DNA of 64,000 nt, taken from contig NBMH01000045.1 in assembly GCA_002084875.1 (NCBI GenBank), positions 1 through 64,000 on the forward strand, in the 5' to 3' direction. A program made the position numbers and the translations under genes. How positions within the stretch are numbered: the first letter of the stretch is position 1; each line of letters opens with the position of its first letter. Below, piece after piece: positions 3,160 to 63,405 of the stretch. The notes under the pieces were generated by a model that worked only from the letters and a program-made list of their open reading frames with translations, had not been told where the DNA came from and made no database searches. Source of the DNA: Anaerolineaceae bacterium 4572_78 (GTDB lineage Bacteria > Chloroflexota > Anaerolineae > 4572-78).

Positions 3160-3193
3160 AAACAAGAAAGGTTTTCGAAAACCTTTCTTGTTT
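3160..3193. repeat. 34-nt palindrome, AGACAAGAAAGG family variant
   Basis: aaacaagaaaggttttcgaaaacctttcttgttt, perfect inverted repeat. Confidence 0.95.
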
Positions 3194-5412: not shown

Positions 5413-5507
5413 AATTGCCATCTCCAATAAATGAGATGAGACTCTAAAACAAAAAAATTGTCGAGTTTTAAGGTTTGTGGTATATTATCTAGTAAGGAGG
5501 TGTTATT

Positions 5508-6065
5508 ATGCTAAAATTTAATGAATGTACCTTACTAAAACTAGATAAAACATTTGCTCTCAGCCAAGTTGAAGAGAATCAGATATTGCAAGATTGGATT
5601 GGAAGTCATGCTGATATTTCGGACTTTGAACAACAAAGTCTGAACTTGTATCAAGGTATCTTAAAACGTCATGTGCATGACTGGAATGAGGTGGAATTAC
5701 GCCAACATTTTATTGGTCCCATACTCACTCTTGTTAATTTCTCTAACCCCAAATTTACAATGTTTGCCGAACGGAGTTTTAGTGGGGTAGTGGATGATAT
5801 CGAGCTGAGTGGAAAACCCGATGGTATGATTGCTAGTGGGTTTCGTGAGCCTGAAAAACCCTATTTTTGTTTTCAGGAGTATAACGCGTATCAACATGAA
5901 ATTTATGGTTGTTATGTTGTTGGTGATATTTGGCATTTCATGGTACTTCATGGAAAAACATATAGTATTAGTGGCTCTTATGCTGCCACCCGTGATGATA
6001 TTGTTGATATCTTCATAGTTTTAAAAAGATTAAAACAAATCATCATTGATTTAATCGAAAAATAA
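5508..6065 (+). CDS. PD-(D/E)XK-like tandem paralog A (internal deletion)
   Basis: Shares MLKFNECTL..LDKTF, HDWNEVEL, FIGP, GKPDGMIASGFREPEKPYFCFQEY with copies B-D; lacks the K..GDPAGQ.LAAMLVAQELNEH segment. Confidence 0.7.
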   Translation: MLKFNECTLLKLDKTFALSQVEENQILQDWIGSHADISDFEQQSLNLYQGILKRHVHDWNEVELRQHFIGPILTLVNFSNPKFTMFAERSFSGVVDDIELSGKPDGMIASGFREPEKPYFCFQEYNAYQHEIYGCYVVGDIWHFMVLHGKTYSISGSYAATRDDIVDIFIVLKRLKQIIIDLIEK

Positions 6066-6181
6066 TAATCGGAGGAAATTAACATGGCAAACAGATTCTG
6101 GTAAAATATCAATAATATTCTAACAAGAAAATTGCCGGGCTTTAAGGATTGTAGTATATTATCTAGTAAGGAGGTGTTATT

Positions 6182-6817
6182 ATGCTAAAATTTAATGAAT
6201 GTACACTTGATAACCTTGATGAAACATTTGACTTAATTCAGGTTGATGAAAGCAAAGAACTTCATAATTGGATTGATGATAATGCAGATATTTCAGATGT
6301 CGAACAACAAGTGTTAACTATGTATCAGCAAGCTTTGAGAATATATGGACATGATTGGAATGAAATTGAATTATTACAACATTTCATCGGTCCTATGTTT
6401 GCGTTGGTCAGTTTTTCCAGTAAACAGTTTGGTATATTTTCTGAAAGGAGCATGACTGGTACAGTAGAAGGTATTGAGATGGGAGGAAATCCTGATAGTG
6501 TAATTGCCAGTGGGCGGCGTTCTCCAAAAAAACCGTATTTTTGTTTTCATGAATTTAAAAGACAACATGAAACTAAAGGTGACCCTGCTGGGCAATGTCT
6601 TGCCGCCATGCTTGTTGCTCAAGAGTTGAACGAGCATAAACATCCGATTTATGGCTGTTATGTACAGGGGCTAGATTGGTTTTTTATGATATTGGAAGGA
6701 AAGGAGTATTGTATTAGCAACGGTTACATGGCTACCCGTGATGACATTTTCGACATCTTCCGCATTTTGAAAGCCTTAAAGCAAATCGTTATTCGCCTGG
6801 TGGCGATGGAAGAGTGA
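6182..6817 (+). CDS. PD-(D/E)XK-like tandem paralog B (full length)
   Basis: GNPDSVIASG...PYFCFHEFKRQHETKGDPAGQCLAAMLVAQELNEHKHPIYGCYV; paralogous to A, C, D. Confidence 0.75.
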   Translation: MLKFNECTLDNLDETFDLIQVDESKELHNWIDDNADISDVEQQVLTMYQQALRIYGHDWNEIELLQHFIGPMFALVSFSSKQFGIFSERSMTGTVEGIEMGGNPDSVIASGRRSPKKPYFCFHEFKRQHETKGDPAGQCLAAMLVAQELNEHKHPIYGCYVQGLDWFFMILEGKEYCISNGYMATRDDIFDIFRILKALKQIVIRLVAMEE

Positions 6818-6893
6818 GTATGTTTTAAGATTGTTTGATGAATTTGTGAGGTTTTAAGAATTGAGATATATTACCTAGTAAGGAGGTATGATT

Positions 6894-7451
6894 ATGCTAA
6901 AGTTTAGTGAATGTACACTAGCTAAACTAGACAAAATGTTTATCTTAAATCAAACTTATAAAAGTCAACCATTACAAGATTGGCTCAACGGAAATGTTGA
7001 AATTTCAGATACAGAAAACAACGTACTGGAAATGTATCGGCAAATATTAACGATTCAAGGACATGACTGGAATGAAGTTGAATTAAGGAAACATTTTATT
7101 GGACCCATGCTTACATTAGTCAACTTTTCGAGTAAAAAAATTGGCATGTTTGCCGAACGCAGTTTTAGTGGGATTGTTAATAGCATTGAAATGGGAGGGG
7201 TGCCTGACAGTATTATTGCTAGTGGTTTTCGCGAGCCTGAAAAGCCATATTTTTGTTTTCAGGAGTATAAAAAAGAACGTGACCCACTAGGTGACCCAGC
7301 AGGTCAGGCTTTGGCAGCCATGCTTGTTGCCCAAGAAATTAATGAGCATAACAAAGCCTACGTTGCTACAGATGATGCCATTTTCGACATCTTCCGCGTC
7401 CTGAAAGCCTTGAAGCAAATCATCATTCGTTTGGTGGCGATGGATGGGTAA
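6894..7451 (+). CDS. PD-(D/E)XK-like tandem paralog C (internal deletion)
   Basis: Start set by homology at MLKFSECTL; PYFCFQEYKKERDPLGDPAGQALAAMLVAQEINEHN then jumps to KAYVATDDAIFDIF, missing the HPIYGCYV...CIS block. Confidence 0.7.
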   Translation: MLKFSECTLAKLDKMFILNQTYKSQPLQDWLNGNVEISDTENNVLEMYRQILTIQGHDWNEVELRKHFIGPMLTLVNFSSKKIGMFAERSFSGIVNSIEMGGVPDSIIASGFREPEKPYFCFQEYKKERDPLGDPAGQALAAMLVAQEINEHNKAYVATDDAIFDIFRVLKALKQIIIRLVAMDG

Positions 7452-7577
7452 GTATGTTTTAAGATTGTTGTGTGAGTTTGCAGGGTTTTGAGGTTTTAGT
7501 AACCGTTCACCCCTAGCCCCTCCCCCATTATGGAGAGGGGTCGGGGGTGGAGTAAAATCTAGTAAGGAGTTGTTATT

Positions 7578-8213
7578 ATGCTAAAGTTTAGTGAATGTAC
7601 ATTACTCAAATTGGATAAGTTGTTCAGTTTAAAACAGATAAGAAAAAGTCCCATCCTAGATGACTGGCTCAATCAAGCTATAGAAATCGCCGATTGGGAA
7701 GAAAAAGTGTTACATCTGTTGCAAGAAACACTAATCTTAGGTGTTCATGATTGGAACGAATTTGAACTGTCCCAAAGATTTATTGCACCTATGTTTGCCA
7801 TAGTTCACTTTACGAGTGAATCGTTTAATCTTTTTGCCGAAAGGCTGTTTGGTGGTAGCGTTGAGGATGTTGAGATACAAGGTAAACCTGATGGTATAAT
7901 TGCTTCGGGGCTTCGTGAACCTGAAAAACCGTATTTTTGTTTTCACGAATTTAAAAGACAACATGAAACTAGAGGCGACCCTGCGGGACAATGCCTTGTT
8001 GCCATGCTTGTTGCCCAAGAATTAAACGAGCATAAACACCCAATTTATGGCTGTTATGTGGTTGGTGACACATGGCGTTTTATAGTATTGCAAGATAAGG
8101 AATATTGTATCAGCAATCCTTATATTGCTGTCCGTGATGACATTTTCGACATCTTCCGCGTCCTGAAAGCCTTGAAGCAAATCATCATTCGCTTGGTGGC
8201 GATGGATAAGTGA
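7578..8213 (+). CDS. PD-(D/E)XK-like tandem paralog D (full length)
   Basis: GKPDGIIASGLREPEKPYFCFHEFKRQHETRGDPAGQCLVAMLVAQELNEHKHPIYGCYVVGDTWRF. Confidence 0.75.
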   Translation: MLKFSECTLLKLDKLFSLKQIRKSPILDDWLNQAIEIADWEEKVLHLLQETLILGVHDWNEFELSQRFIAPMFAIVHFTSESFNLFAERLFGGSVEDVEIQGKPDGIIASGLREPEKPYFCFHEFKRQHETRGDPAGQCLVAMLVAQELNEHKHPIYGCYVVGDTWRFIVLQDKEYCISNPYIAVRDDIFDIFRVLKALKQIIIRLVAMDK

Positions 8214-8473
8214 GTATGTTGTAAAATAAATTGCGTAATTTTAAGATTTATATCATAATTAGTTAAAATCTTATAAAGATAAAGTAAATGACTGAACAAA
8301 CATCAGAATTAGATTTGATTTTTCAAGCAAAAAAGGTGAAATAACCAAATTTCACTATGTTTGCAGTTTTAGTTGAAGTGCATGGGAGAGCAGCAGTGTG
8401 AGTTGAAAAGGTAAACTTGACAAAGCATGGATAGTGATTTGCGAAAAAGAAATAATTAAGATATAATAAAAAC

Positions 8474-10710: not shown

Positions 10711-10744
10711 AGACAAGAAAGGTTTTCGAAAACCTTTCTTGTCT
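10711..10744. repeat. 34-nt palindrome, AGACAAGAAAGG family
   Basis: agacaagaaaggttttcgaaaacctttcttgtct, perfect inverted repeat. Confidence 0.95.
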
Positions 10745-12117: not shown

Positions 12118-13053
12118 TTATCCACTCACTAATGACCGAGCAAGGAGTAAGGCATTAGCTGGACGTTCTGCTAAACGACGCATGAAATAGGGATACCAAG
12201 CGATTCCATAAGGTACATAAATTCGTACTTGATAACCCATGTCGGCTAAACGTTGTTGCTCATTTTGCCGTACGCCTTGCAGCATTTGAATCTCAAACGA
12301 CTCCTTATCAACGCCCATGCGGTCTGCTTCGGCTAACAACCATTCAATTAACACTGGGTCATGCGAGCCTAGTGCTAAGAAGCAACCTTTCTTGCGTACT
12401 TCCTCCGAGAGAAATGTGCGCATGTACATCATGCAAGCTTGGTTAACTGCATCATGGTTTTGTAGTGCAATCGCAGGTGATTCGTTATAAGCACCTTTAA
12501 CCAAACGGATGTTGCCACCTGCATGGATAAGTTTTTGAACATCTGCTTGAGTACGATGTAAATAGACTTGGATGGCGATGGCAATATGAATGCGGTCGCC
12601 GAATTTCTTAAGTAGACGATAATACACTGCTAGCGTCGTATCAACATCTTTACTTTCCTCCATGTCCATCTCTATTGGGATATCAAGGTCATAGGCAACT
12701 TGAACAAGACTAGCCATATTTTCGTAGAAAAACTCTTTTCCAAAACCTAAACCAAGAAAAGATGGCTTAATTGAAATACTTGCCCCTAGCTTATCTTCAG
12801 CTATACGGTAAGCAATCTTCTGAAATGATTGAGCCGCTTGTTGGGCTTCCTCACGAGTAGTAACATATTCTCCCACTTCATTCATGAGAACGCTAATGCC
12901 GCGGGCATTCAAATCTTTAACAACTGACACACATTCATCTATGGTTTCTCCTGAAATAAACTGACGTGATGTAATCCTAGCGGGTGGGAAACGCGTAACA
13001 AAGCGACGAGCCATATTACTTTGAGATAGGGCGATAAAAAACTGACGTAACAT
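12118..13053 (-). CDS. Proline dehydrogenase family protein
   Basis: IPIEMDMEESKDVDTTLAVYY, AIQVYLHRTQADV, NIRLVKGAYNES, FEIQMLQGVR, VRIYVPYG. Confidence 0.9.
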   Translation of the reverse strand: MLRQFFIALSQSNMARRFVTRFPPARITSRQFISGETIDECVSVVKDLNARGISVLMNEVGEYVTTREEAQQAAQSFQKIAYRIAEDKLGASISIKPSFLGLGFGKEFFYENMASLVQVAYDLDIPIEMDMEESKDVDTTLAVYYRLLKKFGDRIHIAIAIQVYLHRTQADVQKLIHAGGNIRLVKGAYNESPAIALQNHDAVNQACMMYMRTFLSEEVRKKGCFLALGSHDPVLIEWLLAEADRMGVDKESFEIQMLQGVRQNEQQRLADMGYQVRIYVPYGIAWYPYFMRRLAERPANALLLARSLVSG

Positions 13054-13110
13054 CTTCTTTGATACTCCGTATTTTGAAATTATAAACAATGTGCTAACTG
13101 AGGTTGGTCA

Positions 13111-13142
13111 AACAAGAAAGGTTTTTAAAAACCTTTCTTATT
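13111..13142. repeat. Palindrome, AGACAAGAAAGG family
   Basis: aacaagaaaggtttttaaaaacctttcttatt. Confidence 0.9.
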
Positions 13143-13500
13143 TCAACCATAACAATTTCCTTACTTGACACTACATGCCTAAGTAGTTACTAATAGTGTT
13201 GAGAATACATTATATCTACACCACCACAATCGTCAAATTATCATTAGGAGTATGGAGAAATGAGTGATAAAGCACGGCTTTGTCATAAGAGGTCATGATG
13301 ACATGCTTGCTACCTACCTCACAAAATACCTCATTAACTTTGCTGACAAACGACACTTGTGCTAGAATACCGTGTTGAACCTAACGGTTCACCAAGGGCT
13401 ATTCAATGCTATTTTTTGACAAGGTAAATTGGAGCATCAAACCTTGCTTTGACATAAAAAAGTAAGCTTTGTCATTCCAACATTATATTACGAGAATTTT

Positions 13501-14745
13501 ATGTCACCTAAAAATTATCACGAATACATTACAAAAGTTCTTTTAGACGAAAAACGTTTCATGAAGCTTCGTTTTAGTGGTAAATCAAAATTGCAATCAA
13601 CTCAATGGCAAGAGGTCATTTTACGTCCTATTTTCCTAAAAGAAAAGCGATATATTCAGTTTTCTTATTTTGACAAACAGAAGAATATAACTAAAAATTA
13701 CATAGGACACAGTGTGGAAATCAACTTAAATAAATTGTTTGACATGTCCTTCAAAAATATTCACATTTTCACCACCGATGAAAATATTCACATTCAACAA
13801 ACCAAAAAAGGGAAAATCATTATCCATCATCATCGTCATGACCTACCACTACCGTTACCGTCCTTTGCCCATGACCGTCCTAAAAACTTGATTTTGCCCG
13901 AAGGAAAGCCTGACCCATTTCTAAAAAAGATTGGTGTTATGACCAAAGCAGGTCATGTTAGGGCGACAATGCGGGATAAATTTCGGCAGATTAATGCCTT
14001 TCTTAATATTATTCAGGAAACCCATGCTATTGAAAAACTGACTAATTTTCCTTTGCATGTGATTGATTGTGGTTGCGGTAATGCTCATTTGACATTTGCA
14101 GTTTATCACTATCTAAATCATGTATTGCAACGCCCCACAAAAATTATTGGCATCGACCGCAAAGCAGATTTGCTTGAAAAACGCAATGAGCATGCCAAAC
14201 AATTAGGATGGACTGGTCTTACATTTGAGCAGGCTGATATTATTGAATATCAACCCATACAATCACCCGACATTGTATTAGCATTGCATGCTTGTGATAC
14301 TGCTACAGATGAGGCTCTAGCCCAAGCAATAAATTGGGATAGTCGTATGATTTTTAGTGTGCCATGTTGTCATCATCATCTCCAAGCACAATTCATACAT
14401 GATAACCGTCAGACAAAAAAGGTTTTTAAAAACCTTTCTTGTCTTGCTACTAAAGCTCTTTTGCGGCATGGCATTTTACGAGAACGGCTCGGCGATATTC
14501 TGACCGATACATTTCGCTCTTTAATCCTTCAAAAGCATGGCTACCAAACAAATGTGATTGAATTTATTTCGAGTGAACACACCGCTAAAAATATAATGAT
14601 TCGAGCCGTCAAAACATCACCTTCCCCAAATCCCCTTCGTTCACTGGGTGGACAAATGGGGGGTAACAGTAAACGTGGGGAAGAAGAATACGAAGCCTTA
14701 AAATCTATCTGGCAAGTGACTCCTTATTTGGAAGAACTTTTGTGA
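13501..14745 (+). CDS. Class I SAM-dependent methyltransferase (METTL25-like), carrying an internal palindromic element
   Basis: LHVIDCGCGNAHLTFAVYHYL, VLALHACDTATDEAL, VPCCHHHLQAQ, LLRHGILRERL; 34-nt palindrome at 14411-14444 is within the frame. Confidence 0.88.
   Translation: MSPKNYHEYITKVLLDEKRFMKLRFSGKSKLQSTQWQEVILRPIFLKEKRYIQFSYFDKQKNITKNYIGHSVEINLNKLFDMSFKNIHIFTTDENIHIQQTKKGKIIIHHHRHDLPLPLPSFAHDRPKNLILPEGKPDPFLKKIGVMTKAGHVRATMRDKFRQINAFLNIIQETHAIEKLTNFPLHVIDCGCGNAHLTFAVYHYLNHVLQRPTKIIGIDRKADLLEKRNEHAKQLGWTGLTFEQADIIEYQPIQSPDIVLALHACDTATDEALAQAINWDSRMIFSVPCCHHHLQAQFIHDNRQTKKVFKNLSCLATKALLRHGILRERLGDILTDTFRSLILQKHGYQTNVIEFISSEHTAKNIMIRAVKTSPSPNPLRSLGGQMGGNSKRGEEEYEALKSIWQVTPYLEELL
14411..14444. 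repeat. 34-nt palindrome inside CDS
   Basis: agacaaaaaaggtttttaaaaacctttcttgtct, same family as intergenic copies. Confidence 0.95.
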
Positions 14746-43370: not shown

Positions 43371-43403
43371 AAACAAGAAAGGTTTTTAAAACCTTTCTTG
43401 TTT
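43371..43403. repeat. Palindrome, AGACAAGAAAGG family
   Basis: aaacaagaaaggtttttaaaacctttcttgttt; a second partial copy lies just upstream at about 43337-43360. Confidence 0.9.
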
Positions 43404-53218: not shown

Positions 53219-53252
53219 AACCAAGAAAGGTTTTTAAAAATCTTTCTTGGTT
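53219..53252. repeat. Palindrome, AGACAAGAAAGG family variant
   Basis: aaccaagaaaggtttttaaaaatctttcttggtt. Confidence 0.9.
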
Positions 53253-60947: not shown

Positions 60948-60981
60948 AGACCTGACAGGTTTCTAAAAACCTGTCAGGTCT
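60948..60981. repeat. 34-nt palindrome, CCTGACAGG subfamily
   Basis: agacctgacaggtttctaaaaacctgtcaggtct: same length and AGAC/GTCT ends, different stem. Confidence 0.9.
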
Positions 60982-61138: not shown

Positions 61139-61172
61139 AGACAAGAAAGGTTTTTGAAAACCTTTCTTGTCT
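61139..61172. repeat. 34-nt palindrome, AGACAAGAAAGG family
   Basis: agacaagaaaggtttttgaaaacctttcttgtct. Confidence 0.95.
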
Positions 61173-61521: not shown

Positions 61522-63405
61522 ATGCACAACTATCATCGTTACATTCCTTATATCCTCATCATAATTGCCACATCATTATACATCTTCACTTTGGATACAG
61601 GGCTACGGACAGATGAATTGATGGGTGGTGATTTAATCACCCATCAATATGCCCAAGTGCAAGGGCGACCAAGCAATGCACCTGGCTATCCACTGTATAC
61701 CATGCTCGGTTGGGTATGGTTTCGTGTGGGGCGTTTATTTCTTAGCTGGCTTTTCAACCCGATTCAAATCCTCTCATTTTATTCCACGCTATGGGGATTA
61801 GCTTCATTGTGGATATTGTATCATCTCCTCATGCGTCCTGAAGTAACCAACAAAAATTGGGGCATCGCTATCTTACTGACCAGCTTTTATGGGGTGACTT
61901 ATTTTTTTTGGTATTATAGCGTCACCACCGAACAATACACTTCTGCCATTTTCCAAACCCTGCTCATTGTATGGCTTGCCTTTGAATGGGAACAAAACCC
62001 CTCAAATAAAATCCTGCTCATGATGGCTTTCATGTGTGGCACCATGCTTGCCAACATGATTACGACATTGTTTATTTTACCTCCCTTGTTTTACCTGATA
62101 TTTAGCAAGCGACCTCGCATTTTAACCGACATAAAATTAGTCATGCAAGCAATTATCTTCGGTTTATTTCCCACCATCAGTTATGCTTATATTTACATTC
62201 GAGGACTACAGCATCCTGAATGGCGAGGTGAAGGAGAATGGACAAATGTCACCGAATGGTTTTTCCAATTCATTACCATTCAACAGGGACAAGATGAATT
62301 AACACTAGGCTTGACGCTAGAAAATATAATCACTCACGAATTTCCATCTATCATGGCACATGAATTAACTTTGCCAGTTTTGTTAGGTGGCATTATTGGT
62401 TTAGGCATGTTCGGCAGACGAAAGGCAATTTTCTTTTATGGAACATTATTTATCTACATGGCATTTGTGGTTGCGTATCGTTTTGGCAACTGGTTTCAAG
62501 TTATTTTGCCCATGTATCCTTTAATCGTGCTTGGGTTCGGCAAAAGCATAACGTACTACAAACATTTTACATGTGATTCTTGGCTTATGTCCACCAGACA
62601 AGAAAGGTTTTTGAAAACCTTTCTTGTCTTAACCATGAAAACGTTGTCTCTTCTATTGATCATGTTAGTCAGTTACCGATTTATCATCAGCTTACCACAA
62701 GCAAATCAGCACTATCTTCCACAAGATACAGCACTTGAACCAGGCTGGGCAATAATAACCGACATTTCAAAAGCAGGCATGGGCAATGAAACTATCACTA
62801 TCTCTCCAGAATTTCAAGAATGGTTGGCATTGCAATACTTGCTTGAGATTTGGGATGTGGATATTTTGCTCGAACTGCATGAACCAAATACTCCCGCCGA
62901 ATTTATAACTCGTCAAGCAATTATTGCACAAACCCATCAGATTAATTTAGAATCAATTCATCCTCAAGCAATTGGCAGAGAGGTTATTCATCTCAAGCAT
63001 GAACGAAACATAATTGCCTCTGAACTTGCAATTTTATCGGGAAATATGCTAAATTTTGGTGGGATGATTTATCTAATTGATTACGAAGTTTATGATGGGG
63101 GCGAATTAATTACTATGTCATGGCTGGCACCAAATTTAATCCTCACCGATTACACCATGTCAGTTCGCTTGTGGCAACATGGGCAACCAATCGAAGCATG
63201 GTCAGGTCTATTAATCCAAGACCATCGTCCAGTTTGGAACATGTATCCAACAAATTACTGGCATGCCAATGAAATTGTTAAAGACAGTTACACCTTTACA
63301 CTACCACCACATGCCCAACCTGACCAAATTCAAATAGTGATTTATCACGTAACAGAAGATGGTTTTGAAAATTTAGATGCTCATTTTTTAAACATAGACT
63401 TTTAG
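61522..63405 (+). CDS. DUF2723-like multi-TM protein carrying an internal palindromic element
   Basis: Multiple TM; GGDLITHQYAQVQGRPSNAPGYPLYTMLGW; palindrome at 62596-62629 in frame. Confidence 0.75.
   Translation: MHNYHRYIPYILIIIATSLYIFTLDTGLRTDELMGGDLITHQYAQVQGRPSNAPGYPLYTMLGWVWFRVGRLFLSWLFNPIQILSFYSTLWGLASLWILYHLLMRPEVTNKNWGIAILLTSFYGVTYFFWYYSVTTEQYTSAIFQTLLIVWLAFEWEQNPSNKILLMMAFMCGTMLANMITTLFILPPLFYLIFSKRPRILTDIKLVMQAIIFGLFPTISYAYIYIRGLQHPEWRGEGEWTNVTEWFFQFITIQQGQDELTLGLTLENIITHEFPSIMAHELTLPVLLGGIIGLGMFGRRKAIFFYGTLFIYMAFVVAYRFGNWFQVILPMYPLIVLGFGKSITYYKHFTCDSWLMSTRQERFLKTFLVLTMKTLSLLLIMLVSYRFIISLPQANQHYLPQDTALEPGWAIITDISKAGMGNETITISPEFQEWLALQYLLEIWDVDILLELHEPNTPAEFITRQAIIAQTHQINLESIHPQAIGREVIHLKHERNIIASELAILSGNMLNFGGMIYLIDYEVYDGGELITMSWLAPNLILTDYTMSVRLWQHGQPIEAWSGLLIQDHRPVWNMYPTNYWHANEIVKDSYTFTLPPHAQPDQIQIVIYHVTEDGFENLDAHFLNIDF
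62596..62629. repeat. 34-nt palindrome inside CDS
   Basis: agacaagaaaggtttttgaaaacctttcttgtct, identical to the copy at 61139-61172. Confidence 0.95.

What the first reader, a model, noticed from the sequence alone, without database searches (positions are those of the whole stretch)
14411..14444. 34-nt palindromic element inside a methyltransferase gene, encoding an in-frame insert
The same near-perfect palindrome (AGAC[AAGAAAGG]TTTTTRAAAA[CCTTTCTT]GTCT) occurs between genes at 3160, 10711, 13111, 43371, 53219 and 61139. Here it lies inside the CDS and is read as QTKKVFKNLSCL, between ...CCHHHLQAQ and LLRHGILRERL. This parallels Rickettsia palindromic elements (RPEs), which insert in genes in frame. 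I know of no description for this family or host type.
Basis: partly seen in the sequence, partly recalled or inferred. Interest (0 to 1): 0.75.

Follow-up and report, generated by a model that had tools for sequence, protein, structure and literature searches.

The report
Widespread 33-bp palindrome invading protein genes
A tiny self-complementary DNA repeat is scattered through this bacterium, many of its relatives and some phages, and sometimes lands inside protein genes and adds about eleven amino acids without breaking them, which gives a natural record of how bare palindromes spread and stay perfect.

Summary
The 34-nt palindrome at 14411-14444 lies in an intact methyltransferase gene, and the genome holds at least 106 copies. 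It is one arm-variant of a family not found in the searched literature: AGAC-N5-AGGTTT-N3/4-AAACCT-N5'-GTCT, 33 or 34 nt. The family occurs in 87 of 299 genomes of the class and on phage contigs; the reversed control is zero everywhere. N5 differs between copies (26 perfectly paired types) but its partner changes with it: 214 of 240 copies are perfectly complementary, against 45 when shuffled.

Copies avoid genes (10 of 74 inside, against 72.5% at random) and lie nearer gene 3' ends. Those inside genes sit in loops or linkers and use all three reading frames. Three sites fit clean 33-nt insertion. Sister species carry different palindromes 5 nt apart in one loop, best read as independent insertions.

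The parallel to Rickettsia palindromic elements holds as behaviour, not as membership: length, CGTC tag and host differ. Nor is it a standard REP: no GTAG tag, and no Y1 transposase found in this 82%-complete genome. I read it as a new REP-like, palindrome-only repeat, probably selfish, with arms kept perfect by template switching. The mobiliser is unknown.

The parts
13501..14745 (+). Host gene: SAM-dependent methyltransferase (Methyltransf_32), 414 aa, intact reading frame
   Evidence: orthologs aligned
14411..14444 (.). In-gene copy of the palindrome, 34 nt, arm type AAGAA with one mismatch; read as QTKKVFKNLSCL; lies in a low-confidence loop (residues 300-313, pLDDT below 50) of an otherwise confident model
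14390..14410 (+). Degenerate 5' tag of this genome's copies (consensus CACACGRGRTAATGGTYA; here ATTCATACATGATAACCGTC)
3160..3193 (.). Copy, 34 nt, AAAC..GTTT form, intergenic
10711..10744 (.). Copy, 34 nt, intergenic
13110..13143 (.). Copy, 34 nt, intergenic between 12118-13089(-) and 13501-14745(+)
43371..43403 (.). Copy, 33-nt form AAACAAGAAAGGTTTTTAAAACCTTTCTTGTTT, perfect palindrome
53219..53252 (.). Degenerate copy (AACCAAG..CTTGGTT)
60948..60981 (.). Sister arm type AGACCTGACAGG...CCTGTCAGGTCT, the type commonest in other genomes of the class
61139..61172 (.). Copy in a longer mosaic repeat (TCAAAGCTTGCTTTGACAGTCAAG + palindrome + CTAACTATA)
62596..62629 (.). Second in-gene copy of the window, read STRQERFLKTFLVLTMK in a TMEM260-like membrane protein
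61831..63405 (+). Host gene of the 62596 copy (TMEM260-like, PF11028)

Best explanation
The palindrome is a copy of a REP-like, non-autonomous, palindrome-only repeat of 33-34 bp (AGAC-N5-AGGTTT-N3/4-AAACCT-N5'-GTCT). (1) Shown: copies are dispersed in genomes of this class and in phages, without shared flanks except in this genome, where most carry a one- or two-sided TAATGGTYA tag. (2) Shown at one site and supported at two more: insertion is clean, +33 nt, without target duplication or loss. (3) Shown: copies persist mostly between genes; inside genes they remain in loops and linkers, in any of the three frames that is open. This is what DNA-level insertion followed by purifying selection gives, not a function of the encoded peptide. 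(4) Inferred: the arms are kept perfectly complementary by hairpin template switching during replication, which copies one arm onto the other and flips the centre, so that new arm types arise and then expand lineage by lineage. (5) Inferred: spread is by single-strand (hairpin) insertion by a host or IS-encoded enzyme supplied in trans, with phages as one likely vehicle. The enzyme was not found. The methyltransferase copy is a tolerated passenger in a flexible loop.
For: Copy number: 106 at up to 3 mismatches with 0 reversed controls; family in 87 of 299 class genomes, up to 210 copies, 0 reversed controls. Arm covariation: 214/240 N5 pairs perfect against a shuffled mean of 45 (maximum 64); without the two commonest types 87/113 against 8.3 (maximum 20). 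On 38 distinct sequences, 98.1% of cells paired against 85.3% shuffled, 0/500 shuffles as high. Clean insertion: in a type-ISP restriction enzyme G022 has 18 residual nt, the same as most uninserted homologs, plus 33; in an ATPase G021 and G022 both have 13 residual nt plus 33 at positions 5 nt apart. Unrelated flanks elsewhere. Tag in 53/74 copies of this genome against 9/251 elsewhere. Depletion in genes: 10/74 against 72.5%, P 4e-26; median distance 62 nt to gene 3' ends against 199 nt to 5' ends. In-gene copies: MurG linker, membrane loops, methyltransferase loop; model pLDDT below 50 at residues 300-313. Centre inversion at two neighbouring hairpins between sister genomes with 96.7% identical flanks, the signature described for template switching (PMC8604942). 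Phage contigs carrying terminase, portal and head genes hold copies, one arm type per contig in the four inspected.
Against: No transposase of the REP kind was found in this genome (PF01797 absent), though the assembly is only 82% complete, and mobility was not observed directly. In this genome copies are 34 nt with conserved flanks, so the inserted unit here may be longer than the palindrome. The methyltransferase net gain is 8-10 codons against class relatives, not a clean 11 or 12. The bias towards gene 3' ends, and the phage contig with a palindrome between successive head genes (L315), would also fit a selected RNA hairpin.
Confidence: 0.68

Rival explanations
1. The palindromes are functional RNA hairpins (terminators, RNase processing or mRNA-stabilising sites) kept by selection; compensatory arm changes reflect selection for the stem.
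For: Nearer gene 3' ends than 5' ends, median 62 against 199 nt. In phage contig L315 copies lie 6-15 nt after stop codons of successive structural genes. Compensatory pairs are abundant.
Against: Copies also stay perfect inside coding loops, where a transcript hairpin has no evident role. The outer and inner arm blocks are invariant in sequence, which a stem alone does not need. Intergenic orientation classes did not differ clearly from expectation. No Rfam family matches.
Confidence: 0.15
2. Classical REP/RAYT elements: ssDNA transposition by a Y1 (TnpA-REP) enzyme that has been lost from, or is unassembled in, this genome.
For: Size, stem plus 3-4-nt loop, intergenic and 3' bias, occasional in-gene copies and clean insertion without duplication all fit. 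In this genome there is a 5' tag next to the palindrome.
Against: No GTAG or CGTC tag, no tag at all in other genomes, and no PF01797 hit in the 82%-complete genome.
Confidence: 0.3
3. Palindromes are created in place by template switching or snap-back synthesis at prone sites, not by transposition.
For: Spacer inversions, arm homogenisation, and the same loop holding different palindromes in sister species.
Against: AGAC, AGGTTT, AAACCT and GTCT are shared word for word by unrelated flanks in dozens of genera; one arm type dominates a genome; whole 33-nt units appear cleanly.
Confidence: 0.08
4. Rickettsia-type palindromic element acquired by this host.
For: Same behaviour: palindromic, intergenic and in-frame intragenic copies.
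Against: Length 33-34 nt against 105-146 bp (PMC2229807); no CGTC tag; not found exactly in other genomes of the genome-contig collection.
Confidence: 0.03

Closest known systems
REP sequences (GTAG and CGTC super-families; PMC3733652, PMC8266576)
   Same: 20-40 nt palindromes with short loops, many copies per genome, mostly intergenic with 3' bias, complementary stem variants, some inside ORFs
   Different: No GTAG/CGTC tag; invariant AGAC, AGGTTT, AAACCT, GTCT blocks with a variable N5; no associated Y1 transposase found; also on phage contigs
Rickettsia palindromic elements (RPE) and Wolbachia coding palindromes (reviewed in PMC2229807)
   Same: Palindromic repeats that lie between genes and in frame inside conserved protein genes at tolerant sites
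   Different: About a third to a quarter of the length, no CGTC tag, unrelated sequence, free-living class-wide distribution
Small dispersed repeats of cyanobacteria (very small mobile repeats; known to me from memory and from citations in PMC3116915)
   Same: Very short mobile palindromes without coding capacity
   Different: Sequence relation not tested here; primary paper not held
Template-switch hairpins (PMC8604942, PMC8794818)
   Same: Arm homogenisation and spacer inversion
   Different: Those studies concern local mutations in place, not a dispersed family
Bacterial MITEs (Correia, ERIC, RUP)
   Same: Short, non-coding, dispersed, sometimes fused in frame
   Different: MITEs are 70-300 bp with terminal inverted repeats and usually a target duplication; none seen at the sites resolved here

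Membership tests
Rickettsia palindromic element (RPE) | Palindromic repeat found in frame inside protein genes as well as between genes | tested here: met
Rickettsia palindromic element (RPE) | Length about 105-146 bp (PMC2229807) | tested here: not met
   33-34 nt, sharp end of conservation; unrelated flanks in other genomes
Rickettsia palindromic element (RPE) | CGTC tag at one end (R. conorii repeats, PMC3733652) | tested here: not met
   tag here is TAATGGTYA; none elsewhere
REP (GTAG super-family) | Short palindrome, many copies, mainly intergenic and near gene 3' ends | tested here: met
REP (GTAG super-family) | GTAG tetranucleotide next to the stem | tested here: not met
REP (GTAG super-family) | Associated RAYT / Y1 transposase gene | tested here: inconclusive
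   PF01797 absent from this genome, which is 82% complete; not tested in other genomes
MITE | 70-300 bp with terminal inverted repeats and target site duplication | tested here: not met
   33-34 nt; clean insertion without duplication at G022 type-ISP and G021/G022 ATPase sites
Cyanobacterial small dispersed repeats | 21-27 nt mobile palindromes in heterocystous cyanobacteria (from memory) | not tested
   primary paper not held; no sequence comparison made
Palindrome family AGAC-N5-AGGTTT-N3/4-AAACCT-N5'-GTCT (defined here) | Invariant blocks and complementary N5 arms | tested here: met
   window copies 10711, 60948, 61139 and 62596 fit exactly; 14411 has one arm mismatch

The most novel reading that the evidence does not exclude
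A previously undescribed super-family of palindrome-only mobile DNA shared by bacteria and phages. The only unit that moves is a 33-nt hairpin, its arms are renewed by copying one arm from the other, and it acts as a recurrent source of clean 11-codon insertions in loops of conserved proteins, by a mobilising enzyme that is not the known REP transposase.
Probability: 0.35. Interest if true: 0.8.

Novelty: new variant of a known kind. Interest (0 to 1): 0.6.

Why it matters
It is a natural experiment on three questions: how a bare palindrome can spread, how palindromes stay perfect, and how short in-frame insertions enter protein loops. Because arm type, centre orientation and reading frame can all be read from sequence, insertion, arm renewal and centre flipping can be dated on trees. 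The 33-nt length equals 11 codons, so a clean insertion keeps the frame, which may explain why copies survive in genes. Presence on phage contigs suggests a route between hosts. For annotation, the translated peptides (DLTGFxNLSGL, RPDRFxKPVRS, QTxEVxxTxxV, TRKVFxNLSCL, RQERFxKTFLVL) are insert signatures and not protein domains.

Tried and rejected
A scan of genome contigs for the 30-nt core found nothing outside the own genome, and the viral scan for it found none; only the general pattern revealed the family. Naming the host through methyltransferase relatives failed: the named hits are distant Bacillota, Bacteroidota and others.

I tested and dropped the idea that 33-nt copies are clearly commoner in genes than 34-nt copies (33 of 157 against 12 of 90; difference not convincing). 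I tested whether the three palindromes in the type-ISP loop have independent origins by a tree without the loop: one origin is not ruled out, so independence is claimed only for the ATPase loop, where insertion points differ by 5 nt. Known RNA families: none in the window. Paper searches by sequence string and by encoded peptide found nothing relevant. Searches for palindromes in Beggiatoa-type genomes gave MITEs but not this family. Palindrome queries against plasmids gave only two partial, non-significant matches, and against named phages none. A second in-frame extra piece in the methyltransferase (14618-14690) has no other copy in the 855 kb looked at.

Full report
Observation. The genome (4.10 Mb in 252 contigs, 82% complete) holds 106 copies of the core at up to 3 mismatches and none of the reversed control. 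None of 398 other genomes drawn from the phylum has this arm type at up to 2 mismatches, and no other genome in the genome-contig collection has it exactly. The phylum is probably Chloroflexota and the class Anaerolineae; that is my inference from the spread of genome sizes, not a tool result.

Anatomy in this genome. I took 52 stretches plus the window, 855 kb at 39.9% GC, and found 87 copies at up to 6 mismatches. Conservation ends sharply after 34 nt, and the second base from each end (R/Y) changes on both arms together (identity 0.89 observed, 0.57 shuffled). Outside it lies an asymmetric tag, CACACGRGRTAATGGTYA, or a mosaic partner such as TTGACTGTCAAAGCAAGCTTTGACGCTCCA. A tag-like flank is present on at least one side in 53 of 74 copies, against 2.2% expected per side and 9 of 251 copies elsewhere. 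So this genome carries a tagged derivative.

The wider family. A sister palindrome at 60948 (AGACCTGACAGG...) led to a general pattern, AGAC-N5-AGGTTT-N3/4-AAACCT-N5-GTCT, which does not demand that the two N5 match. It hits 87 of 299 genomes of the class, up to 210 copies in one, with no reversed-control hit in any, and 65 stretches of viral contigs. Four carrier contigs tested have phage terminase, portal, head or tape-measure proteins. In the contigs inspected, each carries one arm type, mostly between genes: L315 has four copies between successive head-region genes. In L180 a copy lies in the portal gene.

Arms co-vary. Of 240 copies with distinct flanks, 214 have perfectly complementary N5 arms; shuffling gives 45 on average and 64 at most. 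Without the two commonest types it is 87 of 113 against 8.3 (maximum 20). There are 26 perfectly paired arm types. On 38 distinct 33-nt sequences all five variable pairs show changes on both sides, 98.1% of cells pair (85.3% shuffled, 0 of 500 as high), and sliding the partner destroys it. Something keeps the palindrome perfect even where it is read as protein.

Centre inversion. One orthologous locus in two species of one genus (L231 in G011, L246 in G017; 96.7% identity over 306 bp of flank) has two neighbouring hairpins. In each the only change in the hairpin is an exact inversion of the spacer, CTA to TAG and TGG to CCA. Arm homogenisation with spacer inversion is the reported signature of template switching between inverted repeats (PMC8604942; see also PMC8794818). 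That this mechanism acts here is inferred.

Insertion in genes. In this genome 10 of 74 copies lie wholly inside called genes, against 72.5% of random 34-mers (P 4e-26). They are in MurG (two, in the linker between intact N and C domains), two adjacent membrane-protein genes (two each), a type II restriction-modification enzyme, a TMEM260-like protein, a PKD protein, a Wzy/EAL fusion and others. One copy extends the C terminus of the DNA polymerase III beta clamp. Orthologs lack them and have short loops of variable length at the same points, some filled by unrelated repeats. The methyltransferase insert falls in a segment of pLDDT below 50 (residues 300-313) in an otherwise confident model (mean 82.0). 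All three reading frames occur (RQERF, TRKVF, DKKGF here; RPDRF, DLTGF, QTxEV elsewhere), so the peptide as such is not what is conserved.

Borders. In a type-ISP restriction enzyme most homologs have 18 nt between two conserved codons. G022 has 18 nt plus a 33-nt palindrome, with neither duplication nor loss. In an ATPase, G021 and G022 (same genus) both have 13 nt plus a 33-nt palindrome, but of different arm types and at points 5 nt apart. Removing the palindrome on paper leaves FHAFELAQEDDAELRRRF and FHAFELVLFDSAELRRRF, of equal length. Two independent insertions in one loop is the simplest reading. In the type-ISP loop three species have a palindrome in three different frames, while others hold unrelated repeats; a tree cannot exclude a single origin for those three.

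Position between genes. Copies lie nearer to gene 3' ends (median 62 nt, 32 of 65 within 60 nt) than to 5' ends (median 199, 13 of 55). The gene caller was a simple codon-usage script that misses some genes, so these figures are approximate. This is the REP pattern (PMC3733652), and could be avoidance of promoters or an RNA role.

Comparison with known kinds. REPs share size, shape, placement and occasional in-gene copies, but carry a GTAG or CGTC tag and are tied to Y1 transposases (PMC3733652, PMC8266576). Here there is no such tag, and PF01797 is absent from the assembled 82% of this genome. RPEs share the in-frame behaviour but are 105-146 bp (PMC2229807) and CGTC-tagged. MITEs are longer and usually duplicate the target. 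No paper in the library holds the sequence or the encoded peptides in a relevant context; most subscription papers are not in it, so prior description cannot be excluded.

Verdict. Real, larger than reported, and best read as a new REP-like palindrome family, probably selfish, with template switching keeping it perfect. Shown: family, distribution, covariation, depletion in genes, clean 33-nt borders at the sites that could be resolved, spacer inversion at one locus. Inferred: mobility mechanism, phage transport, neutrality of in-gene copies.

Noticed in passing
window 663, 12001, 13430, 24723, 57627, 60809, 63513: Another dispersed repeat family of paired hairpins (TGGAGCGTCAAAGCTTGCTTTGACATGAAAAAGCGAGCTTTTTCGCTCCA), often fused to the palindrome studied here.
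   Followed up: partly
window 14618-14690: A second in-frame extra piece in the same methyltransferase (SPNPLRSLGGQMGGNSKRGEE), absent from orthologs, single copy in the 855 kb examined, also a low-confidence segment of the model (375-387).
   Followed up: partly
L437 (G011, type-ISP restriction enzyme): A 33-nt perfect palindrome of the same 15+3+15 geometry but different sequence (AGAGTTCGGAAGTCTCGAAGACTTCCGAACTCT) in the same loop, suggesting further families of this shape.
   Followed up: no
L421, L422, L436, L443, L445, L204, L190, L195: The same loops of orthologous proteins in other species are filled by unrelated repeats (for example FTIYDLRFT, SVVSGQWSVVSGQ, CTCTCCC repeats), so some loops are general landing sites.
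   Followed up: partly
L315, L333: Overlapping phage contigs with identical CTCCG palindromes between nearly every pair of successive structural genes, 6-15 nt after stop codons.
   Followed up: partly
L318:294: A hybrid with the CTGAC arm on the left and the CCTAA arm on the right, a possible recombinant of two arm types.
   Followed up: no
window 5455-8241: Tandem family of diverged direct repeats of about 700 bp (4 copies, 62-69% identity), each starting with a near-identical leader AGTAAGGAGGTGTTATTATGCTAAAATTTAATGAATGTAC.
   Followed up: no
window 34338 and 60766: Inverted repeat family GTAGGGGCGTATGGCCATACGCCCCTAC, also seen next to palindromes in L132 and L140.
   Followed up: no
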